Below are positions 13,985-63,051 of a stretch of DNA of 64,000 bases, piece after piece. The notes under the pieces were generated by a model, which saw only the letters and a program-made list of their open reading frames with translations, had not been told where the DNA came from and ran no database searches. Positions within the stretch are counted from its first letter, which is position 1. Every line of letters starts with the position of its first letter. This DNA comes from Linyphia triangularis (Eukaryota > Arthropoda > Arachnida > Araneae > Linyphiidae), in contig OZ021733.1 in the NCBI GenBank assembly GCA_963978545.1, forward strand, positions 30,379,330 to 30,443,329. Reading direction: 5' to 3'. Position numbers and translations under genes: made by a program.

Positions 13985-16200
13985 TAAGTTTCAGCCTGCA
14001 TAAAATATTTCGAAACTTGACATAGAAATTAGAGTTTAGTCCCAGGGACCCCCTCCTAATAGCAGTTATAGTGTTACATACTTATTGTAAAATTATGTCG
14101 AATAATTCTTGCATTTCCTCCTGATTAGTGGCATTGGATTTATAACCTCGCAAAAGTTACACTAGCTATACTGTAGTAAATTTTTGTAGCAGCCCCTCGT
14201 TAAAATTATCTCGGTAACAAGTTCAAAGTTACAGCCTGCATAAAAACTTTCAAAATACATAGAAATCAGAATTTAATCCCTGGGACCCTTAACATGTGAA
14301 CTACTTTTAAAAAAATCAGATGGTTCATACATTTCTTCTTAATTTGTTGCATTGTATATCTAATGGCGCAAAAGTTACACGAGAACTATATTGCAGCGAG
14401 TTTTTGTAGCAGAGCCTCGTTAAAATTATTTCGGTTACAAGTTCAAAGTTATACAGCCAGTGTAAAAAATTACAAGACATACAAAATTAAACTTTGATCC
14501 CTGGGACCCCCTCCCATCAAGAAAATTTGCATAATGGCACTTAAAATGTTAACTACTTAAAAAAAAATCAAATAGTTCATGCATTTCTTCTGGATTTGTT
14601 GCATTGTATTTCTAATGGCGCAAAAGTTACATGATATCTATACTGCAGTGAGTATTTGTAGCAGCGTCTTAAAAATTATATCGGCAACAAGTTTCCAGTT
14701 ACACCCTGCGTAAAAAATTACAAAACACATAAAAAATAAAACTTTGATCTCTGGGCCCCTACCATCAAGAAAATTGGCATAAGGGTACTTAACATGTTAG
14801 CTACTTTTAAAAGAAATCAAATAGTTCATCCATTTCTTCTGGATTTGTTGCATTGTATTTATAATGGCACAAAAGTTACACAAAATCTATAATACTGCAG
14901 TGAGCTTTTGTAGTAGCGCCTCGATAAAGTTATCTCGGTGACAAGCTTCACAAGTATCTGCGTAAAAAATTTCAAAACACATAAAAATTAGAATTTGATC
15001 CCTGGGACCATCACCCTCCCATTAAGAAAATTGCCATAATGGCACTTAAAATGTTAGTTACTTTTAAAAAAAATCAAATAGTTCATGCATTTCTTCTTGA
15101 TTTGTTGCATTGTATTTATAATGGCCTAAAAGTTACACGAGATCTATACTGCGGCGAGTAATTGTAGCAGCGCCTCGTTAAAATTATATCGGCAACAAGT
15201 TTCCAGTCACAGTCTGCGTAAAAAATTACAAAACACATACAAAATAAAACTTTGATCCCTGAGCCACCTACCATCAAGAAAATTGGTATTAGGGTTACTA
15301 CTTAACATGTTAGCTACTTTTAAAAAAATCAAATATTTCATGCATTTCTTCTTGATTTGTTGCATTGTATTTATAATGGAACAAAAGTTACACGAAATCT
15401 ATAATACTGCAGTGAGCTTATGTAGTAGTGCCTCGTTAAAGTTATCTTGGTGACAAGCTTCACAAGTATCTGTGTAAAAAATTTCAAAACACATAAAAAT
15501 TAGAATTTGATCCCTGGGACCCTCCCCCCTCCCATTAAGAAAATTGCCATAATGGCACTTAAAATGTTAGTTACTTTTAAAAAAAATCAAATAGTTCATG
15601 CATTTCTTCTTGATTTGTTGCATTGTATTTCTAATGGCGCAAAAGTTACATGATATCTATACTGCGGTGAGTATTTGTAGCAGCGTCTTAAAAATTATAT
15701 CGGCAACAAGTTTCTAGTCACAGTCTGCGTAAAAAATTACAAAACACATACAAAATAAAACTTTGATCCCTGGGCCACCTACCATCAAGAAAATTGGTAT
15801 TAGGGTACTACTTAACATGTTAGCCACTTTTAAAAAAATCAAATAGTTCATGCATTTCTTCTTGATTTGTTGGATTGTATTTATAATGCAGCAAAAGTTA
15901 CACAAGATCTAAACTGGAGTGAGCTTTTGTAGTAGCGCCTCGTTAAAATGATCTCGATAACAAGCTTCAAGTTACAGCCTGCGTAAAAAATTTCAAAATA
16001 CATAGAAATTAGAATTTGATTCCATCGACCTTCTCTCGTGAAGAAAATTTGTATAATGGCAGTTAACATGTTAGCTACTTTAAAAAAAAATATATTATTC
16101 TTGTTTTTCTTCTTGATTTGTTGCGTTGAATTTATAATAGTGTAAAAGTTACCCAATATCTATATTGAAGCCATTTTTGGTCGCAAAGTCTTTGCTACTG
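13985..16200. repeat. ~250-bp tandem array with a two-unit higher-order pattern
   Basis: About nine units mark their start with a CTGCGTAAAAAATT-like motif near 13993, 14233, 14456, 14705, 14955, 15212, 15471, 15725 and 15977. Each has a 'CCCTGGGACC' core, a T-rich segment with GATTTGTTGCATTG, and 'CAAAAGTTACA'. The middle units alternate between two variants (AAAATTGGCATAAGGGTACTT and AAAATTGCCATAATGGCACTT types), giving a ~510-bp higher-order repeat. Confidence 0.9.
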
Positions 16201-20519: not shown

Positions 20520-21693
20520 GAAAAAAAATTATTCCGATAAAACTCTTCGCAGATTCTTTTACAACTCCAAAACTTCCCGTTCTAATAAACTCAATACAGC
20601 TCTTTACACACCAATGGAGCACAAACAGCAGTTAAAAACTAGATACACAACTGATAAAATCGACGGAAAAGACAATGCAATACAGTTTACTTTCGGAACT
20701 ACTGAATTCTCGCTGAGAGACAACTAACTAACTCAATTACACGCTCCCTTAGCAATATATAGGAAAGCTAATCCATCGCGAATCTTCTAGAGATAGAAAT
20801 TCGGAGAATTTTCTAGATTTTCGAAAAGCCCTATATTGGTACACGGGGACCGAAAGTGTCACCAAATGGTTGCCAAGTTTGACGACATTTGGCAATTTCT
20901 CGCCAAATTTGGCGACCAAAATTAGTCTCCAAAACCTTCGCCAACTTGGCTCTATCTCTCCAACTTGGCAAGATTGCCATTAACCATAATGTTAAATGGT
21001 CTTCTCCTTGTAAAACTCGTTTCCTAGCATTATCCCTGTAAAACTCGTTTTCAAGCAATAAGAGACGCATTGCAGGAAAGCGAAGTAAAGACAAACTCTT
21101 GCACTGCCTTATGCGAAATGTACATAAATTTTCCTTTTTACATAATTAATACTACGAAATATTTACAAATATACAGAAAATCGTAACACAAGATACGCAA
21201 CTGCTAAAATCGACGCAAAAGACAATGCAATACATTTCACTTTCGGATCTACTCTGAATGCTCGCTGAGAGACAACCACCTCACTCACTCGATCACCCAC
21301 TCTCTTGGCCTTATATAGGAAGGCCAATCATTTCGAATCTTCTAGAGATAGAAATTTGGAGAATTTTCCAGATCGCAGTTAAAAAGCCCTATACAGGTAC
21401 ATGGGGACCAAAAGTGTCACCAAGTTTGGCGACATTTGACGATTTCTTGCCAAATTTGGTGACCAAAATTAGTCGCCAAAACTGTCGCCAACTTGGCGAG
21501 ATTGCCATTTTCCATAATGTTAAATGGCCTTCTCCTTGTAAAACTCGTTTTCCAGCATTAAGAGACGCATTGCAGGAAAGAGAAGTAAAAACGAACTGTT
21601 GCACTGCCTTATGCGAAATGTACTTAAATTTTTCTTTTTACATAATTAATACTACGAAATATTTACAAATATACAGAAATTCGTAACAGGACA
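20520..21693 (-). repeat. Gypsy-type LTR with tandem ~500-bp U3 duplication
   Basis: On the minus strand, blocks beginning TGTTACGAATTTCTG (from 21688) and TGTTACGATTTTCTG (from 21188) repeat with a spacing of exactly 500 bp. Each has GGCCTTCCTATATAAGG-like TATA sequence or its diverged version; the second block carries about 50 bp of extra sequence. A purine-rich GAGGAAGGAGTG sits just upstream (minus) of 21693, as a polypurine tract should. Sequence at 20520-20640 may be the rest of the LTR. The GCCAAGTTGGCGA motifs inside recur in inverted form. Confidence 0.6.
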
Positions 21694-28329: not shown

Positions 28330-29119
28330 AAAAAAATTAAAAAAAAAATTTAAAAAAAAAGTGTGTTATAGTTTACCTTTTGTTCCCTCCCCCCCCCACT
28401 CCCCCGTTAATATTACTAATTACTCCTAATCATATAATGAAAAGCATGTTATAATTAATAATTTTATTAAATTAAGAATAGAGAACACATTAAAATGAAC
28501 TCATGTCGGTTGGACGAAGTGTAAAAGTTAAACAGCCTTGAAGATAAAACTTTTTTAATATAAGAAAAGTTACCAATATTTTCAACAGTATAAAACATTT
28601 TATGTACAATACAGGTGGCTGGATTAGATACCAACAGTATAGGAAGCAAAAGCTTTTTTATTTTGTTTGACATCATAATAATAAATTAAAATACTAATCA
28701 CAAAAAAATAAGTGAAAGTATGAAAACCGATGTCACTCAATTTCTATTCTGTATTTAAGAAAAAGAAAACAAAGAGTTAGGGAAGAGTTATAAAATAAAT
28801 TAAGTCAAAACCTTGGTTAAAAATTCTGTAGAAATCACAGGCGAAAATTTTTCATCAAATATTACATGAATCATAGAAAAAAAACAAGAAAAAAAAAATG
28901 CCGACAGCAACAATTTCACTTTTCGTAACTTTAGAGTGAATACCTAAATAAAAAATTTTATAATGTTTTAAAATAATTTAAATAAATCATTTTAAAGACA
29001 TCGGTATTGCTCCTAATATTCGAGTCAATGATATTTCATGAATCAATTCATGCAAAATAATTATGGCTTAACAGTAGAACTAATGAAAAATGCCATTAAC
29101 TTAGAGTGTGCAATATTTA
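28330..29119. other. Left interior of the hAT-type element, no gene seen
   Basis: AT-rich with A-runs and a C-run near 28390-28398; no coding signal beyond short frames. Confidence 0.45.
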
Positions 29120-29349
29120 TGTGGGAGTAGACGATCAGAGAAGGGACACTTGCTAAGTGTAGAATCCAGCTTTAATGAATCCTTATTGCCTCTTATCTCA
29201 TACTACATCAGGCACAAGCGCCTTTCTTACGTATATTCACATCGAGAATGTTCAGTGATTTGTCTCTCTAATCAGAATGAGGAATACCTCCCTCTGCCGC
29301 TAGGAGTCGCCACGAGGGGTTCTCTAGTGGTGCGCCCCCTATCTCCACA
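29120..29349 (-). repeat. 3' LTR of the retrotransposon
   Basis: 230 bp, ends TG..CA on the minus strand. The stop codon of the 423-codon frame (29339) lies inside it, so the last codons of that frame come from LTR sequence. No clean polypurine tract precedes it; the adjacent minus-strand sequence is AAGATGACCGAG. Confidence 0.93.
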
Positions 29350-30610
29350 CTCGGTCATCTTGGCGAACTATGTCCTCATAGTTTATGTCTGAAGTTATCT
29401 GAAATAGAAAAACACAAGGAAAGCAATATGCACAGATACTATGATTGTCACATCTATGATTGTTTTTGATTGGTGTCTCTTTGTAATGGCCAAAAAATTT
29501 TGTTCGCTGAGTGTAAACTTTAAATGTTCTGTTTTTTTTGCGTCTTTTCTTAAACTGTTTGAGGCTCTCCTTATTCATTGAGGTTTCTTCAGTCTTCTTA
29601 TTTGCATCTGATAATGATCTCTTCTTTTTATGTTTTTCCTTGACATCCTTCTGTCCTTTTTTGGTTCCATCTTGTTGAAGGTTCATTTTAATCTTTGAAA
29701 TTTCTGCATTTTGAAGTTTCTTTCCATGCTGAATATGTTCAACGAGAATAGAATCTTCCTTCATTGCTCTAACTTGTTTAGTTATCTTCACATCCATTTC
29801 CTTTACTTCTTTTTGTCTGGAACATAATTCTCTCTCCAATTCAATGCTGTGATTTTTCTCCTTTAGCTGTCTTTTTAAGTTTGCTCCTTCTTCTAAAAGT
29901 ATGACTGAGGGTTGTAATACTTTATTAGTGGCACTCAACTCACACTTTTCAAGAGTTTGGCATCGTTGACCTAACTGTTCTTGTAGTAACTTGGCTAGCT
30001 TTAATTCATTTTTAAGATTGACAATTTCTTCTTTAGCAGATCCAATTTCCATTTCACAACCTGCAATGTCTTCTCTGTATTTTTCAAGAATTTCAGTGGT
30101 TTCTGCCAGTTCCTTTAAATTTTCCGATTCTATTTCTTCAAGTTTAGCTTGTAATGCATCATTCTTAACTTCCAGTTTAGAGTACTGTACTTTGAAAGTA
30201 GAACCTTCTGTATGCAACTGTAAGATTTCATCTTCACATTCTTTTATCTTACTTTGAGCTTCGTTCAGTTTGCAATTAAATTCTTCCATTTCTCTCTTGA
30301 AATCTTCATCTCCTCTTGGTAGAGCTTTTTTCGCTTCTACTTCAGGAAGTTTTTCTTTAAAAGGCGTACATTCTGTAAGTAAACATGAAGCAATCCTACG
30401 CTTTTCGCCAAATAATTTCGCATCTGCTACGGAATCTTCTCTCTTCTTTTCGCCGCCAAGGTCTAATCTTTCTCGGGCCACACCAGTAAGATGACTAGCG
30501 CTTCTGCATTCGGAAGGCGGAGCTACAAATTTCTCCTCTGCTCTGCTTCCTGATTGGCTGCCGCGGCTGTCGATCTTCTTCTCAACTGTCAGAACAGATT
30601 TGATTGACAT
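29339..30610 (-). CDS. Captured coiled-coil protein gene within an LTR retrotransposon
   Basis: An uninterrupted 423-codon frame starting MSIKSVLTVEKKIDSRG. Residues 1-75 are polar and probably disordered. Residues about 95-300 are a long coiled coil rich in K/E/L heptads (for example KLNEAQSKIKECEDEILQL and EEIVNLKNELKLAKLLQEQL). Residues 305-370 are very basic (KKGQKDVKEKHKKKRSL, KKRRKKNRTF). The last 50 residues are hydrophobic/cysteine-rich and may be read-through of 3' UTR, and the final 16 or so reach the LTR. No pol-like motif is present. Heptad pattern and charge recall HMMR- or centrosomal-type coiled-coil proteins, but only at composition level. The absence of introns over 1.27 kb and its position between protease and 3' LTR suggest a reverse-transcribed host mRNA. 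Transcription would be from the 5' LTR. Confidence 0.75.
   Translation of the reverse strand: MSIKSVLTVEKKIDSRGSQSGSRAEEKFVAPPSECRSASHLTGVARERLDLGGEKKREDSVADAKLFGEKRRIASCLLTECTPFKEKLPEVEAKKALPRGDEDFKREMEEFNCKLNEAQSKIKECEDEILQLHTEGSTFKVQYSKLEVKNDALQAKLEEIESENLKELAETTEILEKYREDIAGCEMEIGSAKEEIVNLKNELKLAKLLQEQLGQRCQTLEKCELSATNKVLQPSVILLEEGANLKRQLKEKNHSIELERELCSRQKEVKEMDVKITKQVRAMKEDSILVEHIQHGKKLQNAEISKIKMNLQQDGTKKGQKDVKEKHKKKRSLSDANKKTEETSMNKESLKQFKKRRKKNRTFKVYTQRTKFFGHYKETPIKNNHRCDNHSICAYCFPCVFLFQITSDINYEDIVRQDDRVWR
29398..29425 (-). promoter_or_regulatory. Strong 3' splice-site-like sequence inside the captured region
   Basis: On the minus strand TTGCTTTCCTTGTG is followed by TTTTTCTATTTCAG, a long pyrimidine tract with an AG ending at 29399. 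Splicing into it would yield a short terminal exon reading into the LTR. It could be the original element's splice acceptor for a subgenomic mRNA, marking the 3' junction of the capture, or simply an intron end. Confidence 0.4.
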
Positions 30611-30744
30611 CTTGCGGAGCGGTTCGCTTTTATTTTCTCTTTTGGCCTCGCCAGACTGGCGCCTGATAACTTGTAAATAAAAAACACGTGGATCCTCTCG
30701 GCTTGGATCTCGAAGCTGTCTGTAAAAGGATGGGTTTTCGAATT

Positions 30745-31080
30745 ATCCTATAACGTCCATTCCAATTATTAATTCATTTGTGTGGTCTTTGATGACGTAT
30801 ATTTTTGCATGATTGAATGAGTTTCGATTTTAATGTCAGTATGGAAATATCCTAATGGTTGTACTTCTATATTACCTAATCCTTTTAGTAATATGTCATT
30901 TCTCATTAATTGGGGTGAACCTATTTTTATATACAAGTCCTCAGAAATGAAGGTGACTTGGCTCCCTGTATCATTCAGAGCAACTATTTCATGATCGAAT
31001 ATTATTACCTTTGTGGTGCTTTTATTGTCAGTGTATGCGCTAATTTTATTGATTGGACTATTATAACTTTCATTTTCGGG
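30745..31080 (-). pseudogene. Retropepsin (protease) domain of the retrotransposon
   Basis: Minus-strand frame with IFDHEIVALNDTGSQVTFIS, the DTG active site of a retroviral-type aspartic protease. After a single frameshift near 30815 the C-terminal part continues (AKIYVIKD, then LIIGMDVIG), the conserved strand closing the fold. A TAA follows immediately, and the sequence then leaves the element, so pol stops right at the protease end. Before the hAT insertion this was in frame with gag: the 8-bp duplication lies between Gag's last readable codons and YPENESYN. Confidence 0.85.
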
Positions 31081-31285
31081 ATACACATTAGGGATGGAAC
31101 GGATGTGAGTTTTGCCGGATACCGTATTTCGGATATCCGGGGTACCATGTCTACCGGATACGGATATCCGAAATGGATTTCGCCGGATATCCGGCCGGAT
31201 ATTCGGTCTATATACTAAAAACGATAGTTATACGATATGCTATACGAAAAAAATGGTCATGATATGAAGTATTAAGTAAATTATA

Positions 31286-31541
31286 ATTAGTGGTTAGCTC
31301 ACCGCACTGCATGCCACAGGTCCATGGTTTGATTCGCGGACTGGGCAAGGTTGACTTAGCTGTTTATACCTGAAAGAAATAAATTGAGGAGGACCATGCA
31401 TGATTGGGAACTAAACACTGGGGTTCGGCGTCAGAATGACCATCTGACTGAAACATCTGCTATGTGACACACAAATGCCACAGTCGAGAAAGCTGAGCTG
31501 GGCCCAGCAGGCCTTAGTCCACACGGGCTGTCGCGCCACTG
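31286..31541 (+). repeat. tRNA-derived SINE-like repeat
   Basis: Begins with GTGGTTAGCTCACCGC (A-box-like) and a B-box-like GGTTTGATTCG near 31328, followed by a GC-richer body ending CTGTCGCGCCACTG. No A-tail or target duplication was identified. A different family from the copies at 3098 and 12331. Confidence 0.5.
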
Positions 31542-31650
31542 CCCTAATAGCACACATCCTCCCAGGGAGGTCCCTGGGAAGTCATTCGTAGTCCCGGGGA
31601 TGACTGGGGACTTCCTAGGGACCTATCTGGGAAGATGTGTGCTATTAGGG
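31542..31650. mobile_element. 109-bp hairpin MITE
   Basis: Ends CCCTAATAGCACACATC (31542) and GATGTGTGCTATTAGGG (to 31650) are exact inverted repeats. The inner parts (CCCAGGGAGGTCCCTGGGAAG and its counterparts) also pair, giving nearly full self-complementarity. No clear target duplication. Confidence 0.75.
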
Positions 31651-31664
31651 TGAGTTAATTTTTT

Positions 31665-31928
31665 TTATTTAAACTTTAGTTGATGAGTGAAAGAGATCTT
31701 TGTTGCTGATTTTATATCTTGTAATATTGATACTTTTAGTTTTTCATATAGTTCTGGCAGGGCTTTATCACGAAAATAATTTCTATTTGGAAGCGGATAA
31801 CGAGGAGCTAGGTATTTTAATAACTGACAAAATCCTTCTCTATTCAAAATGGAGAATGGTTCAGCATCAAGAGCCATTAACTCACCTAAAATTATATTAA
31901 AATTTTTTTTTACAATGTTGAAGTGCAA
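31665..31928 (-). pseudogene. hAT transposase fragment
   Basis: Encodes about 87 residues including ALDAEPFSILNREGFCQLL, then APRYPLPNRNYFRDKALPEL. This matches the conserved early catalytic-domain segment of BED-type hAT transposases (the 'pf..ve..gF..ll..l.P.Y..Psr' region). The rest of the catalytic domain and the C-terminal dimerisation domain are missing; the SINE/MITE insertion lies directly downstream. Confidence 0.8.
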
Positions 31929-32404
31929 AATATAGCTACTTTCAATTTACTTCATGCATTGTTTATAATTGATAAATGATTACAAAATTATACCGGAGGC
32001 ATTTGTTAATAACAAAAGATTTATTTTAAATATTTTATGAAATTGAAGTCTATTTTTTTTTGTAATGCACCTAAAACATTACGGATTTAAAGAAATCTCG
32101 TAGAAAACTTAAATTGGATCTATCGGAATATTCCGTCTTTAAATATAAACTTAAAAAATTTCGAACCCAAAATTCATCAACATTATGTTATACCATATTT
32201 AAAATATATATTTAATATAAACAAACAAAATTAGTACTTACATATTTTTGTGGTTAAGGCTTTTGCTTTAGGATCATCTAAACTCCACAATTTTGGTACA
32301 AATAATTTCGATTCCAATGTTGTCTGCGTGCATTTCTTGTTTTGATGAATTGTTTTTTCTTGTTAATCAATATTTGATGCATTTAGTGAGTCTTTAAAGC
32401 TTCG

Positions 32405-32545
32405 GTGAATTTCCTTATGCACACTCATTAAATGGTTCCATAAGGGTTTTGTGGGAAAGGATTTTGGGCTTTTGCCGCGCACATTTTTTAAACGATTCTG
32501 TGGAGCAAGTAACACATAGGGCTTTGCTTTCGTCATTTCCCATTA
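32405..32545 (-). pseudogene. BED zinc-finger relic of the hAT element
   Basis: The minus strand reads ESKALCVTCST and, in a second frame about 45 nt on, PTKPLWNHLMSVHKEIH. The C-x2-C plus H-x4-H arrangement and WNHL.S.H fit a BED finger. One frameshift separates the halves. It lies upstream of the transposase fragment, as expected for an N-terminal DNA-binding domain. Confidence 0.65.
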
Positions 32546-33388
32546 ATTTTAAAATACTTTCAAATGGGTGATTTTAAATGAGCCATTATTAAAAATTATA
32601 AATTGGATTGTAATTGGAGAAAACTAAAATTCAAGGCATTCTAGAGAGCTAAATATAATTCCACATTGTGGCGCTGCTTTAAAGACCTAAAAATTACAAT
32701 ACTTCATTTTACGTCAGAAAAAATACACCAGCTTTCAACTTCTGCCAATGAAAAATCAGAAATTAGACCATACCATTCACAGCATAAAGGGGTAGGGAAT
32801 TATCGTCGATAGAACAAAAAAAAGCATTGAGGATTGCGCATTGATTATTTATTGCTTTTTACTCGCTAGCAAATGTCAGAAAAAAAGGAGGAAGTGAGAA
32901 TAACTAAAACTCTTAAGTCACTTATGTTATGGAAAAAAAGTACTATTTATTAGTATTTCGGTTCGAGTTTTACGGAGAAGCATTCAAATATAACATCTAG
33001 AATTAATCAGATCATAAACTTGGAATGAAAAGAACATATTGCAAAACACGTATGAAGGATGTGTATGGAAAAAGATTGGAGGAATGGTTTATGCTTATCA
33101 ACTCAGCGTCAATAATACGGCGCCTCTTTCTGTTTTCGTTTTCTAATTTGACTGCAATTTATGTCCAAGAAAAAAAAATTACAAATAAAGTGTAGGGTGC
33201 GGTGTTTCCTTTGTCCGAAAAAGATTATTATTTTTTTCAAAAAATTATTTCTTGTAGATACCTGGTGGTCGGATATACAGCCGGATATCCGAATGAAATT
33301 ATCGGATGTCCGGTATTTCAAATCGGATATCCGACGGGGTTTCGGATATTGAAAAATCAGCCGGATATGCCGGATATCCGTTCCATCC

Positions 33389-34558
33389 CTAATACACATT
33401 ACTTTTATAATTAGGAAAATTACTAATTACAGCTCTATTTGCCTTCTTTTTTGGACAATAGGCCTGAATGTGCCCGATTTCATTACAATTAAAGCATTTA
33501 ATACCTTGATTTTTAACTTCAAACTGGTTATATTCATTAGGCCACTCTGTATTATCAACAATACCATTATTTATTTCCTTATAAAAATGGTTAGTATTGG
33601 TTTGAGCACGAACGAATGGACGTTCCTGTATATTTTCTCTAGACTGCCAGTGCTTCCTGTTTTTTTCTTCATATTTATTTTCGCGAAATACCGTATTCTT
33701 TTTAAAATTATTTCTAGTTGAATCAAAGTCATCGAGTTTGTTGACCAAAATTTCCCTATTTTTTATTTTCGGAAGTTCGTCCATAAAGTGTTCTCGAATT
33801 TCTTTGGGTAATTTTCTTTTTATTTGATCTACTAGCATTAATTCTTTTAAATCTTCAAATGTTGCGACATCAAGTCCGCTCAACCATTCGGTTAGATAAT
33901 TGTTTAGTTCAAAAGCAAAGTCTCTCCATGTCTGACATTGTTCTTTTTTATGGAAGGAGAATTGTATTCTGAACTGTTCTGGGCTAAGTCGGTATCGTCT
34001 CAGCAAAATGCTCTTAATGTGGTCGTAATTATTCGCTAGTGTTTCCGGCTCACGTGTTATTAAGCTTGCTATGTCAAGTGGAAGCAATGTGATTAAATAA
34101 TTCACCCAAGTATCTTTCGATATTTCTAGACGACTTATTTGTCTCTCAAATAGTGTCAAGTAGATGATTATATCACTACCATCAAATGGTTTCATATACT
34201 GTAATATATTTGGGCTTCTGCCTACTTCGTTTTCCCGTGCGTTTGTTACAGTAGCGCCAAGTTGGCGAATTTCTGCTTCTATGCGCAGTTTCGCTAACTC
34301 GAATTCTTTCGCTTCCCTATCTTTTGCTAACTCAAACTCTTTCGCTTCCTTTTCTTCACGATCATTTACAATTGTGTTTAACATATTTTTAACGAGGTTT
34401 TCATCATAATCGGCGTGTTCTGTTATTAATTTACATAATTGAGCGATTTTTGGATTAATGGGTTGTTCCAATCCCAGTTCATCTATTAAAGCGAGTAAGT
34501 CATTCTTTCGTGCTCTGGCAAGAAACGCGATGTTAGTATAATCGAAAATTGTACTCAC
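33389..34558 (-). CDS. gag: Gag polyprotein, interrupted at its end by a hAT insertion
   Basis: 389 codons before the hAT sequence; the stop is supplied by the inserted element. Residues about 60-105 form a charged helix with a direct repeat (AKEFELAKDREAKEFELAK). Residues about 120-280 resemble the capsid/SCAN-like region of arthropod Ty3/gypsy Gag (YMKPFDGSD, then RYRLSPEQFRIQFSFHKKE and MLVDQIKRKLPKEIREHF). Residues 358-371 are the zinc knuckle CFNCNEIGHIQAYC (CX2CX4HX4C). The start ATG follows the leader from the 5' LTR directly. The frame is otherwise free of stops, consistent with the young LTRs. Confidence 0.88.
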   Translation of the reverse strand: MSTIFDYTNIAFLARARKNDLLALIDELGLEQPINPKIAQLCKLITEHADYDENLVKNMLNTIVNDREEKEAKEFELAKDREAKEFELAKLRIEAEIRQLGATVTNARENEVGRSPNILQYMKPFDGSDIIIYLTLFERQISRLEISKDTWVNYLITLLPLDIASLITREPETLANNYDHIKSILLRRYRLSPEQFRIQFSFHKKEQCQTWRDFAFELNNYLTEWLSGLDVATFEDLKELMLVDQIKRKLPKEIREHFMDELPKIKNREILVNKLDDFDSTRNNFKKNTVFRENKYEEKNRKHWQSRENIQERPFVRAQTNTNHFYKEINNGIVDNTEWPNEYNQFEVKNQGIKCFNCNEIGHIQAYCPKKKANRAVISNFPNYKSNVY

Positions 34559-34559
34559 A

Positions 34560-35195
34560 GTTTTTCTGTTGACTTGTTACCTCGACTTGTGACAGTCAGT
34601 GCCTATGTTTCGTTATGGTCTTCCAGTGCTTGCTGGTCCCCTCCTTAATGATGTTGACCTCTTGTATTTGACACGAAGTTTCTTGGCTTCGACGGCGGTG
34701 TTCCAATGCTTGTTGTTTCCGCTAAACAATCCTCTTCGTCGGCGCTGACTTCGCTTTTCCGACGTGGTGGTTTCGCTTTCCGATGAGACGTGATTTCACT
34801 TTCCGGTCACTGTGCTAGCTGGTTCACTTCTCAGTGATATCGACTTCTTTTATTCGATGAGCAGTTTCTTGGCTTCATTAGCGGTGTTCCAATGCTTGTT
34901 GTTTCCGCTAGGCAATCCTCTTCGTCGGCGCTGACTTCGCTTTTCCGACGTGGTAGTTTCGCTTTCCGGTGAGACGTGGTTTCCCTTCCCGGTCACTGCG
35001 CTGTTATGTCGTTTATACTGCTAGGTGATACGACGGCTTATACTCCGATCCCCGGTTCACTGCTGGGTGACTACGGTGCTGTTCGGTTTCATTTGTACTC
35101 GTATCTCGTACTTCTGGTTTGCCCTTACACGTTCTGCCGTTTGGTTCTTAACGTAACGTTCTGACACCTACTCAGTTCGTGATGCCGAGCCCCCA
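34560..35195 (-). other. Untranslated leader with a ~186-bp direct duplication
   Basis: Two copies of a block of roughly 135 bp (about 34682-34815 and 34868-35000) sharing GTGTTCCAATGCTTGTTGTT and CTGACTTCGCTTTTCCGACG. The plus-strand motif CACTTTCCGGT also recurs. Such repeats in the leader may relate to packaging or translation control. GC content is higher than in flanking DNA. Confidence 0.7.
35178..35195 (-). promoter_or_regulatory. Primer binding site of the retrotransposon
   Basis: Directly adjoining the 5' LTR, the minus strand reads TGGGGCTCGGCATCACGA. It begins with TGG, complementary to a tRNA CCA end. I could not identify the matching tRNA. Confidence 0.6.
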
Positions 35196-35425
35196 TGTGG
35201 GAGTAGACGATCAGAGAAGGGACACTTGCTGAGTGTAGAATCCAGCTTTAATGAATCCTTATTGCCTCTTATCTCATACTACATCAGGCACAAGCTCCTT
35301 TCTTACGTATATTCACATCGAGAATGTTCAGTGATTTGTCTCTCTAATCAGAATGAGGAATACCTCCCTCTGCCGCTAGGAGTCGCCACGAGGGGTTCTC
35401 TAGTGGTGCGCCCCCTATCTCCACA
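35196..35425 (-). repeat. 5' LTR of the retrotransposon
   Basis: 230 bp, two mismatches to the 29120-29349 copy. It is followed (plus strand) by TTTA, matching the four bases before the other LTR. Confidence 0.93.
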
Positions 35426-36246
35426 TTTATAAATTTGCAACCAAAGTCAAAGGTATTGTTATATTGACCAGTTCAACAGTTTTAATTTAAATTCATGAAA
35501 AAATGAATAATTACTTGATTTGAGGATGAATAATTACTTGAAAAATGCATTGCATATGCATCTCAAATTTGAGATGTCTACTTACATTGAAACCAACCTG
35601 CAAAACATCCGATGGGGCTCGATTCGATGACGTTTCACATGTGAATTGAATATATTGCCTCTGGTCAATGAGTTTTGACATAGCGATAGTTAAAAATAGG
35701 TGTTTTACCATGATTCTTGATATTTTGAAAAGAAGTTGAGCAAACATGGAACTAGCTTCAAATTTTAATATTATATTTAATTCAGAATTTATTTTGAGAA
35801 TTGGATCCTACCTGAGTTAAGAATAAACACCGTTTCTTCAATTTTAAGAATGCACAAATTTTATTTGACAATTTCAAATTGCTTGTATGATTTTGCTTTT
35901 TAAAGGGTGTAGGTTCTTGACTCAGATTCTTTACTAAATGCTCATGAATTTTTTTTTTGGTAACAGTAACTAGGTTTGCTTTATCTACATTTTACATATT
36001 ATTTGGGAGAGAGGGAGGGGGGGGGGGTGAAAATTCTGTAACTGTGACGTTTATTATTTAACTTTAACACAGCATTATGCGATGGCTTAGTTCTAGTGGA
36101 GCCCCTTATTTAGAGAAGAACATTTTTTATTCTCTGTATAGAAATTCTTCCGTTGATGGCATCGGATTGTAAGTTACGTTAATAATTTAATAGGATATCA
36201 AATATTAATGTAAGACAAATCACTTCTTCCGATCATATATCCTATT

Positions 36247-36368
36247 GTTTTTATTTTGATATTTACTTTTTTCCCGAAAAATGTTTGAGTATTTAAATGT
36301 CGTCTATATGGACGACATTTAAATACTCAAACATTTTTCGAGAAAAAAGTAAATATCAAAATAAAAAC
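36247..36368. repeat. Near-perfect 122-bp palindrome
   Basis: Arms of about 58 nt with a single internal mismatch (CCCGAAAA versus CTCGAAAA) around a 6-nt centre GTCGTC-TATATG-GACGAC. It lies inside the outer hAT-type element. Probably a MITE of fully paired type or an unprocessed inverted duplication. Confidence 0.9.
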
Positions 36369-36868
36369 ATTTTGCAGAGAAAATCTTACTCTTACATTTT
36401 GAAAAACAAAGAGCGAAAATGAATGCAATGGATATTTATTGTAGCCACTTTTTTCGCACCGTTATACTAGAGGACCAACGTGCAATCGCCGTCTCTACAA
36501 AAAATGGCCATTCCTTTACAGAGAAGTCCACCCCAGAGCAGAGCGATCAGGGATGTTTTAGAAATTTTGTATTTATGCTATGGCAAAACAGGATGTCACG
36601 TGAAAGTCGCAACCTTATATGCCCTATCGGTTTAAAATTCAAGGTCGTCCGAAGAAGGGGTCATTTTGTCCCCAGGAAAACTAGCATTTTTAAAAGAAGG
36701 GTCGCTTTTTTGCAGTAATGATTGTGATTGATTAAAAAATTTTCGAGTTTGTTGCAAGAGCTCCCTGCTCCCTTCACAATAGTTAATGTCTAATGACAGA
36801 ATAAATAAGTTTTAAGCTCTTTTTTTTTTAAATATTAAAAAAATCCCACAACAAAACAATATTAACAA

Positions 36869-42726: not shown

Positions 42727-43220
42727 TCAGATCAAACAAAATAATGGAAAAAGTTCACCCACCGTCTCAGATTTTCTCCAAATTTTGTATAATGGAATTA
42801 TGAGCTAGGATGGCCACAAATCTCTAATTTGAAGGCTCCATGATTTTTAATTACTGAGAAATTAATTATTGTAACTTTAAAATTTTCCGCGAGATGCACC
42901 ATTTTTCTTCTTAATTTCTTAAATAACTCCTTACCTATACAAGTTACTGAAGTGAAAGTTTGTTTCTAGGGGTAACTTTTTAAGCTGATTTCAAAAATGC
43001 AATCAGAAATTGTGTATATCCTATAGTTTTTGCATTAAACATATTTTTGCCAAAAAAAATTCAAGAATTTTTTTTGACATGTTTGATCAGGAGCACATGT
43101 TTTAAATTTTTATATGTTGTTAAGATGGTATACCACTACTTCCAGAAACAAATTCATCTTGACTTTCTGTCTCAGAGCTGAGAAAAAGATTATTGAATTT
43201 TCACAAGGAACGACTATAAA
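42727..43220 (+). repeat. Left terminal inverted repeat
   Basis: 494 bp pairing with 45348-45831. Landmarks shared in inverted orientation include GGATGGCCACAAATCTC, CCGCGAGATGCACCATTTTT and GGTATACCACTACTTC. Confidence 0.85.
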
Positions 43221-45347: not shown

Positions 45348-45831
45348 TTTATAGTCGTTCTTTGTGAAAGTTCCAATAATTTTTTTCTCTGCTCTGAGAC
45401 AAAAAGCCCAGATGAATTTTTTTTTGAAGTAGTGGTATACCATCTTTACAACATATAAAAATTTAAAACATGTGCTCCTGATCAAACATGTCGAAAAAGA
45501 TTCTTGAATTTTTTTTGCAAAAAATTGTTTAATGCAAAAACTATAGAAGATACACAATTTCTGATTGCGTTTTTGAAATCAGCTTAAAAAGTTACCCCTA
45601 GAAACAAACTTTCACTTCAGTAACTTGTACAGGTAAGGAGTTATTTAAGAAATTAAGAAAAAAAATGGTGCATCTCGCGGAAAATTTTAAAGTTACAATA
45701 ATTAATTTCTCAGTAATTAAAAATCATGGAGCCTTCAAAATTGAGATTTGTGGCCATCCTAGCTCATAATTCCATTATACAAAATTTGGTGGAAATCTGA
45801 GACTGTGGGTGAACTACACTGTTTGATCTGA
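45348..45831 (-). repeat. Right terminal inverted repeat
   Basis: Inverted partner of 42727-43220, 484 bp. The outermost TTTGATCTGA mirrors TCAGATCAAA on the left. Confidence 0.85.
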
Positions 45832-51422: not shown

Positions 51423-52487
51423 TCAGACAATATCAGTGAAGCCATTGACATTAATGAAGTCTGACACTAGTTGTGGACAGTTATAAATGTCCTCCCAGTC
51501 CAGTCCAAGGCAGTTCAAAATGTGCTCAGGTGATGCCTGTTCTTTTTGGCATTTAGGGCAAAGAGGAAAATTTTTGCTTCCCCCAGAATATGTGAGGCCT
51601 TTAAGGTGACCACTAGCAAGTCGGGACAGACTGGTATTGGTGTGCCTATCACAAGGAAGAGATAGAGAGTGTCCTGGCTTTTTGGCTTTATACCATTCGT
51701 GAGATGGAGGTATATGCCATTTCGCTTTATTTTGAGCTATTTTCTTTGAGTATAACTCTTGATATGTGAGTTCTTGAGTAGAGAGGACAGGGTGTTCTAG
51801 TCCCTCCTTAGCAAGAGTGTCAGCCAATTCATTTCCGTGGATGTCTACATGTGACGGGATCCACTGAAAGTGCACTTTGTGCAGTCGGGATATGCTCTTG
51901 ACTTTGCGTATTATGGATAGACTGGTTTTGTCTCCCACGAGGGCCCAGTTTTTAAGGTGTTGAATGGAACTTCGGCTATCGGATAGAATCCATAAGTCTC
52001 CGTAGTTGACCTTGCCAAAGATATTCTCTAAACCCAGGTCAATTGCTATTAATTCACTTCGAAAGACAGAGCAGAAATCTGGATTACGTTGTTTAATAGA
52101 ATGTTTCTCTACGGGCGTTTCTATATAAATTCCACTGCCTGCCTGTATATCTATTTTGCTGCCATCTGTATAGATTTTGATGTCAATTGAAGGAATTTGA
52201 TTAATAATTTCCAATGCCAATTGCCTAAGAAATTCCAGACAACATTCATTCTTATTAAGTGTGGTGGGAAGGCAATCAATAAAATCAACATTGGAGAGTC
52301 CATCGTAAGTGTTCAAATTAGTATTAAGACAGTGGGGCTCTACATTATCTGCCATTAACTTCTGTGATTTAACTTGGCTGAAAGGACTGTGTTTCTTAAG
52401 TCTTTGATTGCTTGTCCAGTTATTTAAGTAATAGGCCGTTTTATTTTCTTGGTTTAAGCTGGAAAGTTTATTGAAATATTTGACCAA
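51423..52487 (-). pseudogene. LINE RNase H domain and C-terminal zinc finger
   Basis: 354 codons. RNase H catalytic residues are present: D in IKIYTDGSK (near 52175), E in FRSELIAI, D in ILSDSRSS and H/D in WIPSHVDIHGNELAD. The C-terminal CPKCQ..SPEHILNC is a CCHC finger typical of jockey/LOA-type ORF2 ends. One frameshift near 52480 separates it from the reverse transcriptase part, so ORF2 is broken although this half is intact. Confidence 0.88.
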
Positions 52488-52933
52488 GCCTGCCGCCTTC
52501 TGAGAGAGAGTGGTTGCAGATCCGCTTCGTAAAGGACAATTTCTGAAGGACAGCTACGTTTCAGTCCTGTGATTATGCGGGCAGCACTCAAGTGAATCCT
52601 TTCTAATTTGTTCAAGTTCGTATCAGAAGCACAGCAGTAGATAGGGCAGCCATATTCTAGAATAGGTCTAATAAGTGCCTGATAGGAGGTTCTGAGCGTA
52701 GTTGCGTCCGCACCCCAGTCTCTACCTGCAATGTGCTTAACAATATTTAATCTTTTCCTGGCTTTCAAGGCTATATATTCAATGTGTTTATTGCAAGTAA
52801 ATTCGGGATCAAGAATGAAACCCAAATATTTTGGATGTTTCTCGTAGGTGAGTTTCTGGTTTTTGAGGAACAAGGATGGCTGGTAGTTATAGAGGTGCTT
52901 ATTTGTAGTAAAGAAAGTGGTAATAGTAAACAT
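52454..52933 (-). pseudogene. LINE reverse transcriptase thumb region
   Basis: About 159 codons. HPKYLGFILDPEFTCNKHIE is the conserved segment after the RT palm, and IRPILEYGCPIYCCAS, then LERIHLSAARIITG, are the jockey-type thumb motifs. The catalytic YADD box lies upstream and has been lost to truncation. Overlaps the RNase H frame by 34 bp through a frameshift. Confidence 0.85.
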
Positions 52934-52936
52934 AGA

Positions 52937-53830
52937 AAAAGTAAGCTATTCCGATCTCGATTAACCTACTTTAAGGGGTGGAAAGGGGTTAAACGTTCCA
53001 AACGAGGGATATTCGAATATCCCACTTCTCATATGGTCACAACTCTGAAAATCGGTGCGAATGTCAAAAAAGATAGAGAAAGATTAAGCTATTCCGATCT
53101 CGATTAACCCACTTTAAGAAGTCGATAAAGGATTAAATGTTCCAAACGAGGGATATTCAATGTCCTACTTCCCATTTCGTCGCAACTCTGAAAACTGGTG
53201 CAAATATCAACAAACACAGAAAAATTAAGCTATTCCGATCTCGATTAACCCACTTTGAGGGGTCAAAATTTGGGTTAAACGTTCCAAACAAGGGATATTC
53301 GAATGTCCTACTTACCATTTCGTCACAATTTTGAAAATTGGTACAAATGTCAACAATGGATTGGTACAATGGATATTTGAATGTTTTTCTTCCAATGTAC
53401 AATTCTGATATTTGGTGCAAACGTTAAAAAAAAAAGTGATTCCAGTATCAATTAATGAATTTTTAAGGGATGAAAAGTCGACGCAACATTGAAACTATTC
53501 GAGAAATATCTTAATGTATCACTTCCAATACATCTACAACTTTGAAATTTAGAACCAAGAGTAAACATAAACACATTAAACTATTGTAATCTCGATTACG
53601 TATTTGAAAAAGGTCCAAAGGGGGTTAAACTTTATAAATGATGGATATTCAAATGTCTCATTTCCAATATAGTATTCACAATTAATAAATTTTGGAAAAA
53701 ATTTCAACTAAAGAAAGTTCCTATTTTGATACATCAATTTGTTGGGATCGAAATGCCATCAAGCGTTTGAAGTGTAGAATACATGAATGTCTTTTGATTG
53801 CTAAAATGCTCAGTGTAAAATTTCGTAGCT
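52937..53830. repeat. ~140-bp minisatellite of the Helitron
   Basis: Units begin AAGCTATTCCGATCTCGATT at 52943, 53086 and 53226 (spacing 143 and 140). Further diverged units follow to about 53830, each with a GGATATTCGAATGTC-like core and an AACTCTGAAAATTGGTGC segment. Confidence 0.9.
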
Positions 53831-61899: not shown

Positions 61900-63051
61900 A
61901 GGTATGGTGTCTTCTAGTATAGAAACTAGAACTGTGGGTCTTTTGATATCATACGGTATGAACGGCAAAGGTCAAACACCACGTTTTTTAAAGAAAGAAA
62001 AAAAAAAAAAATATTATGCTAAGTTAATTGATTTAAATTTTTTTACAAAGCTATTTCAAATAGGGATACAGCTCTGGAATATATTTAACATGAGTAGTTC
62101 TGGACTTTTGGAAAACAATGTTAAAGTTTGGATAAATATTTTTAATTATTATTATTATTATTATTATTATTTTTTTTTAAATGACTTGTATATGGCTGCA
62201 GCTTTGAAACTTTCAACATAAGTAGTTTTGGCCTTCTAATTAAATTTTAAAAAATGTAATATTAAAATTTTGATTACTTTTTTAGTTTGAAATTTTTTTA
62301 CAAAGTGACTTCCAATAGGAATGGAGCTCTGAAATTTTCAACAGAAGTAGTTTTGGCCTACTAATTGCTTTTTTGGAAAATAGAATACTAACATTTAAAT
62401 TATATATTTTTTTAATTAGTTTTATTTTTTATTAAATGACTTCTAATATGGCTACAACTCTGAAACTTTCAACATAAGTAGTTTTGGCCCTTTAATTGAA
62501 TTTTTAAAAAATGTGATGTTAAAATTTTGATTACTTTTTTTAATTAATTTGAATTTTTTTTACAAAGTGACTTCCAATAGGAATGGAGCTTTAAAATTTT
62601 CAACAGAAATAGTTTTGGCCTTCTAGTTGGACTTTAGACAAACACACTTAAAATGTTCTGTGAGGGGGAGGGATTGTGTTGATGTATGAACGAGGAATTT
62701 TTTTTTTGTTTCTCGACAGGAGTGTATTTTATTGAATAGCAATTCATCATTTAGCGAGTGAAATTATCATATGCTTACGCAGCAATGAACCTTTGAGCGA
62801 GCATGTTATTGAATATTATTCGATTAATTTTTTACAAAGCGAGTTTTACCAGGCCTAGAGCTCTGAAATTTTCAACATAGTAGTTTTAGCCTGCTATTTA
62901 GACTTGATACACAGAATGCAATTTTTTTTTACTTAATTTTTTACAAAGTGACTTCTAATAGATGTATAGCTCTGATATTTTCACGAGAAGTATCAAAAGC
63001 TGGAGCCTATACACAATGACGGGTTTCAGCAACGCAAGACCCCACTGCTAG
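61900..63051 (+). mobile_element. Second Helitron-like minisatellite element
   Basis: About seven diverged units of roughly 128 bp with the core GAAATTTTCAACAGAAGTAG and TTTTGGCC (near 62072, 62206, 62331, 62462, 62593, 62857 and 62970). Two alternating variants give a ~258-bp period. The array ends in GACGGGTTTCAGCAACGC..CCACTGCTAG followed by T (63051), a Helitron-like 3' end. The 5' end is not defined. A (TTA)n tract lies at 62147-62171. Confidence 0.5.

What the first reader, a model, noticed from the sequence alone, without database searches (positions are those of the whole stretch)
29120..35425. LTR retrotransposon that appears to have replaced pol with a host coiled-coil gene
Seen: two 230-bp LTRs with two differences, TTTA duplications, primer site, gag with CCHC knuckle and protease, all on the minus strand. 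The protease ends at its last conserved strand, followed at once by a stop and then unrelated sequence. An intact intronless 423-codon K/E-rich coiled-coil frame occupies the place of RT/RNase H/integrase. Known: acute transforming retroviruses capture cellular mRNA this way; gene-carrying LTR elements exist in plants and a few animals. Inference: a Ty3/gypsy element captured a processed cellular mRNA and the chimera was mobilised recently by an intact helper.
Basis: partly seen in the sequence, partly recalled or inferred. Interest (0 to 1): 0.88.

Follow-up and report, generated by a model that had tools for sequence, protein, structure and literature searches.

The report
Jumping gene with swapped-in coiled coil
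A spider-like genome carries a large, apparently recently active family of retrovirus-like jumping genes whose copying enzymes have been replaced, inside one continuous protein, by a coiled-coil protein of unknown origin, so the family probably depends on complete relatives and may repay them with shell protein.

Summary
The window holds a Ty3/gypsy-type LTR element: 230-bp LTRs with 2 differences, TAAA duplications, gag, protease. Against a complete relative in the same genome (L018, gag-pro-RT-RNaseH-integrase, one 1530-aa frame), pol is replaced by about 813 bp encoding two long helices (a coiled coil). It is not a one-off: at least 142 genomic places encode the coil at 87% identity or more, and in 81 it lies in one open frame of 950 aa or more. 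Reading frame is conserved; selection on coil residues is weak or undetected. Gag and linker trees conflict over L018, so pol-bearing and coil forms recombine. Best reading: a semi-autonomous family making Gag-protease-coil and using RT and integrase in trans (inferred). The coil's origin (host mRNA?) was not found. Plant analogues exist (RLG_Quinta, RLG_Sabrina). New variant of a known kind.

The parts
35196..35425 (-). 5' LTR, 230 bp, TG..CA
35426..35429 (-). 4-bp target duplication TAAA (minus sense), 5' side
35186..35195 (-). primer-binding-site-like TGGGGGCTCG (tRNA-Pro match recalled)
   Evidence: sequence
34626..34997 (-). tandem duplication of 186 bp in the 5' untranslated region, also seen in other family copies
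33392..34576 (-). gag frame (395 codons, cut by the hAT-like insertion)
33449..33502 (-). CCHC zinc knuckle
   Evidence: PF00098, 22.6 bits, cut-off 20.8
31089..33391 (-). hAT-like insertion, 2303 bp, 16-bp matching ends, inside gag-pro
   Evidence: second copy beside L028, 97% identical
33392..33399 (-). 8-bp duplication ATGTGTAT, one side of the hAT-like insertion
31081..31088 (-). 8-bp duplication ATGTGTAT, other side
30720..31086 (-). protease region (weak Pfam match; frame broken in this copy, open in some relatives)
30372..30719 (-). element's own linker between protease and RT
29559..30371 (-). foreign coiled-coil segment, about 271 codons, in the place of RT, RNase H and most of integrase
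29350..29558 (-). degenerate integrase tail (FFGHYK.. against FFGPYK..) and 3' region shared with the complete relative
29339..30742 (-).
29120..29349 (-). 3' LTR, 230 bp
29116..29119 (-). 4-bp target duplication TAAA (minus sense), 3' side

Best explanation
The window copy is one hAT-damaged member of a large, young, semi-autonomous Ty3/gypsy LTR family. Its open members encode a single polyprotein, Gag - protease - linker - coiled coil - integrase remnant, in which about 813 bp of unknown source replaced RT, RNase H and most of integrase in a lineage ancestral to the sampled copies. Shown: layout, shared joins, pol-bearing relative with the same LTRs, a lower bound on copy number, open frames, recombination with the pol form. 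Inferred: family RNAs are packaged in shared particles, reverse transcribed and integrated by RT and integrase of pol-bearing relatives, while Gag-protease-coil contributes shell protein; the coil, at the end of each Gag chain, acts as an oligomerisation or spacer domain. The swap most likely arose by reverse-transcriptase template switching between an element RNA and another RNA.
For: The 40 scored LTR matches (of 648 candidates) lie in 29 places, window included: 24 carry the coil, 1 carries pol, 4 show neither. L018: one open 1530-aa frame with RVT_1, RNase H, H2C2 and rve. The coil copy L010 matches L018 at 94.9% over its first 2.8 kb and at 95.6% over its last 313 bp. Own-genome protein search: 335 candidates, 142 scored, all 142 at 87% identity or more; 128 without a stop in the coil, 81 of these also in an open frame of 950 aa or more (tally 104). 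LTR pairs identical in 11 of 22 other two-LTR coil copies, 1-4 differences in the rest. Exact 4-bp duplications in 19 of those 22. Indels: 6 of 7 in coil and 4 of 4 in linker are multiples of 3, against 0 of 4 in the 5' region and 0 of 4 in tail/3' region. Stop changes 4 of 194 coil variants against 5.5% expected, p 0.016. Gag and linker data reject each other's grouping of L018 (AU p 1e-46 and 5e-17). Coil segment modelled as helices 21-147 and 155-266, mean pLDDT 83.
Against: Residue-level selection on the coil is not significant (57 copies, 51 in frame used: N/S relative to expectation 0.91, p 0.57; variants in one copy 0.95, in 2-4 copies 1.55, p 0.29, in 5 or more 0.57, p 0.07), so the coil may be a tolerated spacer. 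Copies were picked by LTR or coil similarity to the window, so youth and frame counts are biased upward. Only one pol-bearing copy was seen; their number is unknown, since that search did not complete. No expression or particle data. The AU groups were chosen after seeing the trees. The coil model is from a single sequence (pTM 0.31). Only 3 of 13 coil copies have the whole frame open.
Confidence: 0.8

Rival explanations
1. The coil is a captured host protein that does something specific for the element, for example drives Gag assembly or targeting, so that the family is a true gene-carrying element.
For: Frame and indel phase are kept; two long confident helices; no significant match to pol; at least 142 copies keep it.
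Against: No parent or homologue found; residue selection weak or absent.
Confidence: 0.35
2. The coil is neutral filler: an internal deletion of pol patched by unrelated sequence, carried along because the RNA is packaged; its open frame reflects youth.
For: N/S ratio near 1 over all coil variants (0.91), linker likewise 0.92; very young copies.
Against: Indels in multiples of 3 in coil (6 of 7) but in 0 of 8 events in the 5' and 3' parts; stop changes under-represented and none shared by two or more copies (0 of 84); long frames in 81 of 142.
Confidence: 0.3
3. One-off capture of a processed cellular mRNA by a single element.
For: The window locus alone looks like this.
Against: Many copies with the same arrangement, most of those checked with their own target duplications.
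Confidence: 0.03
4. Ordinary intronless host gene with LTRs joined by assembly error.
For: None found.
Against: Same arrangement on many large contigs, with separate target duplications in 19 of 22 other two-LTR copies.
Confidence: 0.01

Closest known systems
RLG_Quinta with its autonomous partner RLG_Cereba, wheat (PMC11302176, passages read)
   Same: Non-autonomous Ty3/gypsy partner that shares LTR ends and primer site with an autonomous family, keeps GAG, lacks RT and integrase, and encodes an extra domain of unknown function; recombination by template switching proposed.
   Different: Plant, centromeric; Quinta's gag differs strongly from Cereba's at DNA level and its ORF is said to encode only GAG and DUF1. 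Here an animal-type genome, gag and protease about 95% like the pol form, the extra domain is a coiled coil in the polyprotein frame, and an integrase remnant remains.
RLG_Sabrina_SA and RLG_Sabrina NA variants, wheat (PMC9744471, passages read)
   Same: 'Semi-autonomous' high-copy Gypsy elements encoding GAG-protease without RT/INT; variants carry unrelated coding segments.
   Different: In Sabrina the unique segments replace GAG-Pro; here the foreign segment replaces pol and GAG-Pro is kept, fused to it.
LTR-mediated retroposition in metazoans (Tan et al. 2016, seen only as a citation in PMC8232201, passages read; paper itself not held)
   Same: LTR machinery copies a non-element RNA next to LTR sequence.
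   Different: Here no parent gene was identified, and the product is a multi-copy family, not a retrocopy.
ORF3 capture by bdelloid rotifer LTR retrotransposons (PMC5408684, abstract and outline read)
   Same: Animal LTR elements with acquired extra ORFs.
   Different: There, by the abstract, ORF3 comes in addition to gag and pol; here the acquired part replaces pol.
Acute transforming retroviruses (recalled)
   Same: Gag fused to a foreign segment in place of pol, dependent on a helper.
   Different: A family with at least 142 genomic copies; cellular origin of the segment not shown.

Membership tests
Ty3/gypsy LTR retrotransposon | Two LTRs with TG..CA ends and short target duplication | tested here: met
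   19 of 22 other two-LTR coil copies and L018 have exact 4-bp duplications
Ty3/gypsy LTR retrotransposon | gag with CCHC and aspartyl protease | tested here: met
   (CCHC above cut-off; protease matches weak, below cut-off); in L018 protease matches are stronger but still below the curated cut-offs
Ty3/gypsy LTR retrotransposon | pol order protease-RT-RNase H-integrase | tested here: not met
   not met in the window copy; met in the relative L018
Ty3/gypsy LTR retrotransposon | tRNA primer site after the 5' LTR | tested here: inconclusive
   TGGGGGCTCG seen; tRNA-Pro match recalled, host tRNAs not scanned
Ty3/gypsy LTR retrotransposon | polypurine tract before the 3' LTR | tested here: not met
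   the 40 nt before the 3' LTR are nearly identical in the 14 copies, L018 included, and hold no purine run; the window copy reads the same way
Semi-autonomous LTR element (Sabrina_SA / Quinta type) | intact gag(-pro), no RT/integrase | tested here: met
   whole gag-pro-coil frame open in 3 of 13 coil copies; 81 of 142 genome-wide matches in a frame of 950 aa or more without a stop in the coil; the window copy itself is broken
Semi-autonomous LTR element (Sabrina_SA / Quinta type) | autonomous partner with the same LTR ends in the same genome | tested here: met
   L018
Semi-autonomous LTR element (Sabrina_SA / Quinta type) | mobilisation in trans | not testable with these tools
   recombination with the pol form is indirect support
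Host-gene-carrying LTR element | identifiable spliced host parent gene | tested here: inconclusive
   none found; own-genome search filled by element copies, 142 of 335 candidates scored
hAT transposon (the insertion) | 8-bp target duplication and short matching ends | tested here: met
hAT transposon (the insertion) | hAT transposase | tested here: inconclusive
   the one frame scanned, 93 aa at 31665-31946, has no Pfam match

The most novel reading that the evidence does not exclude
An animal retrotransposon captured a cellular coiled-coil coding sequence in exchange for its entire copying machinery, and the Gag-protease-coil fusion made it a better particle builder or packager than its parent, so it now outnumbers the autonomous form and lives from it by exchange of proteins and by recombination: a stable, gene-carrying satellite of a retrotransposon.
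Probability: 0.3. Interest if true: 0.75.

Novelty: new variant of a known kind. Interest (0 to 1): 0.58.

Why it matters
Replacement of pol by a foreign domain within the polyprotein, kept open in many young copies and still recombining with a pol-bearing form, gives a natural system in which to ask what a retroelement gains by trading its enzymes for another protein, and how gene capture by LTR elements starts and stabilises in animals. Described partner systems of this type that I read about are in wheat. My open-access searches (only the listings seen, apart from the four papers opened) listed no title or abstract start that describes an animal case of this layout; subscription journals are mostly not held.

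Tried and rejected
Homologues of the coil: none at E<=10 among the 7999 scored candidates for the 467-aa frame (by the tool's length rule about 257-817 aa), none among 5706 candidates for a 596-aa protease-to-tail piece of L010 with the coil region scored (about 328-1043 aa), none in PDB, none in IMG/VR (the tool finds close relatives only). gag in IMG/VR: none. NCBIfam hits to SMC are weak and coil-type. Coil as rearranged pol: rejected; six-frame comparison with L018 pol gave nothing at E<=1, one 14-residue match at E 4.6. 'No polypurine tract means a broken chimera': rejected, since the complete relative ends the same way. Splice-acceptor-like sequence inside the frame at about 29399: it lies in the 3' region shared with L018, so it is no evidence of a captured intron. 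Purifying selection on coil residues: a pairwise dN/dS of 0.48 on 10 copies became 0.91 when the mutation spectrum and 51 in-frame copies of 57 were used (the expectation was computed on 12 of the 51 sequences); I do not claim it. Rows dropped before counts: copies out of frame and L018, 6 of 57 out of frame, L018 for coil and tail, and copies under 90% coverage or of very different length. Number of pol-bearing copies: the same search asked 17 times, never answered. A structure-library search of the coil model was not run, since coiled coils tend to match one another.
Full report
Observation. The repeat search finds two 231-nt copies 6076 bp apart. As LTRs they are 230 bp, TG..CA, with differences at two positions; both sides read TAAA in minus sense, and TGGGGGCTCG follows the 5' LTR. 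The gag frame carries a CCHC knuckle above the Pfam cut-off; the protease piece has only weak matches. Such a frame is not chance: the longest stop-free run in 500 simulations was 192 codons.

The stop that ends gag comes with an insertion, 31089-33391, 2303 bp, with 16-bp matching ends and an 8-bp duplication ATGTGTAT, typical of hAT elements (recalled). A second copy lies beside another family member, 97% identical (L028). The protease frame of this copy is further broken by a frameshift and a stop; several other copies are open through this region.

The family. The window lies on contig C15 of a 1.349-Gb, 369-contig genome. Of three gag relatives found, the named one is from Trichonephila clavipes, 41% identical over 48% of the query; the others are 45% and 42% identical over 98% and 65%. 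I therefore call the host spider-like; this is inference. Of 648 first-look LTR candidates 40 were scored, listed at 98% or more. They belong to 29 places, the window included. I read all 29: 24 carry the coil (one, L021, reaches only partly into the fetched stretch), one (L018) carries pol, four show neither (two with the LTR alone, one LTR with part of the 5' region, one gag-pro that breaks off). Twenty-two coil copies besides the window have both LTRs; 19 of 22 have exact 4-bp duplications, 3 (L025, L028, L032) do not; 11 of 22 have identical LTRs, the others 1 to 4 differences. The set was chosen by LTR similarity to the window, so it leans young.

The complete relative. L018 is 5.8 kb, with identical LTRs and one open frame of 1530 aa containing CCHC, weak protease matches, RT, RNase H, H2C2 and integrase core. 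The coil copy L010 matches it over its first 2.8 kb at 94.9% and again over the last 313 bp at 95.6%. Between, the window copy holds about 813 bp with no significant match to L018. Upstream the break falls shortly after the shared protease-RT linker; downstream it falls in the integrase tail, where FFGHYKETPIKNNHR faces FFGPYKITAVKKNHR in L018. So about 271 codons are foreign. L010 (995 aa), L014 (969) and L015 (994) read gag, protease, linker, coil and tail in one frame; 3 of 13 coil copies do so completely.

Scale. The 270-residue coil protein gave 335 first-look candidates in the own genome, 142 scored, every one at least 87% identical; coil DNA gave 216 candidates, 40 scored, all 96% or more. 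128 of 142 have no stop in the coil, and 81 of 142 also have an open frame of at least 950 aa (tally); that such frames are gag-protease-coil was seen only in the fetched copies. Some copies share identical scores and frame lengths on different contigs, as after a recent burst, and six stand about 8 kb apart on C10. These are lower bounds, and any weaker match, such as a multi-exon parent gene, would not have been scored.

The coil segment. AlphaFold2 on the segment alone gives two helices, residues 21-147 and 155-266, mean pLDDT 83, pTM 0.31: a coiled coil of unknown partners. No homologue was found. The protein searches covered subject lengths of about 257-817 and 328-1043 aa, so a very long or short parent is not excluded.

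Is it kept? Of 57 coil copies (23 picked by LTR, window included, and 34 by coil similarity), 51 are in frame and 44 are also stop-free (22 and 16 of 23; 29 and 28 of 34). Indels in the coil are multiples of three in 6 of 7 events, in the linker 4 of 4, in gag 6 of 10, in the 5' region 0 of 4 and in tail plus 3' region 0 of 4. Changes to stop are rarer than expected (4 of 194 against 5.5%, p 0.016) and none is shared by two copies (0 of 84, p 0.02); read in the two other frames the shared variants give 12 of 83 and 9 of 81 stop changes. But amino-acid-changing variants are not rarer than expected overall (ratio 0.91, p 0.57); variants in 2-4 copies go the other way (1.55, p 0.29) and only those in five or more copies hint at constraint (0.57, p 0.07). 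In the smaller set gag (0.58, p 0.007) and protease (0.41, p 0.02) look constrained over all variants, though shared variants alone are not significant (0.58, p 0.06; 0.72, p 0.59); the linker is not (0.92). Thus the frame is kept while the exact residues are loosely constrained or the test lacks power. A working coiled coil and a tolerated spacer are not separated by these data.

Relation of the two forms. In the gag tree L018 groups with coil copies L022, L028 and L012 (98/99.9); in the linker tree with L010, L026 and L027 (90/98.9). Each data set rejects the other's grouping (AU p 1e-46 and 5e-17; groups named after seeing the trees). Pol-bearing and coil forms therefore exchange sequence, which for LTR elements is usually taken to mean co-packaging and template switching (established knowledge). 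This is the best evidence here that one serves the other.

Mechanism. Shown: structure, joins, copies, recombination. Inferred: RT and integrase come in trans from the pol form; Gag-protease-coil goes into common particles; the coil helps or at least does not hinder assembly; the swap arose by template switching into another RNA. Wheat RLG_Quinta and RLG_Sabrina_SA are described as such partners supplying GAG or GAG-Pro, so the way of life is known; a pol-for-coil swap within one polyprotein in an animal is the new variant.

Open points. Origin of the coil; number and activity of pol-bearing copies (the search was asked 17 times and not answered); absence of a recognisable polypurine tract in the 14 copies, L018 included.

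Noticed in passing
window 31089-33391: hAT-like 2303-bp insertion with 16-bp matching ends and 8-bp duplication inside gag-pro; another copy, 97% identical, lies at L028:4810-7113 next to a family member.
   Followed up: partly
window 31542-31650: A 109-bp near-palindrome nested inside the hAT-like insertion, perhaps a small foldback element.
   Followed up: no
before the 3' LTR in L009-L018, L020, L022-L024; window 29350-29390: No purine run next to the 3' LTR in the inspected copies, complete relative included; the LTR itself begins TGTGGAGATAGGGGG. How plus-strand priming works here is unexplained.
   Followed up: partly
L032:2267-4590: A still shorter form: gag, protease and the start of the linker are missing, the 5' region is joined to linker and coil; LTRs with one difference.
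   Followed up: partly
G000:C10:28308984-28350131: Six coil matches about 8 kb apart with identical scores: apparently a tandem array containing the element.
   Followed up: no
window 51426-52945: LINE-like remnant: RNase H domain (Pfam 7.9e-13) and an upstream frame without a Pfam match, minus strand.
   Followed up: partly
window 13986-16192, 20635-21688, 62024-62992: Repeated sequence in direct copies, looking like long-period tandem arrays of diverged units.
   Followed up: no
window 42752-43220 and 45348-45815: Inverted pair of about 470 bp, 94% identical.
   Followed up: no
window 36246-36369: 62-nt inverted repeat with no spacer, 97% complementary.
   Followed up: no
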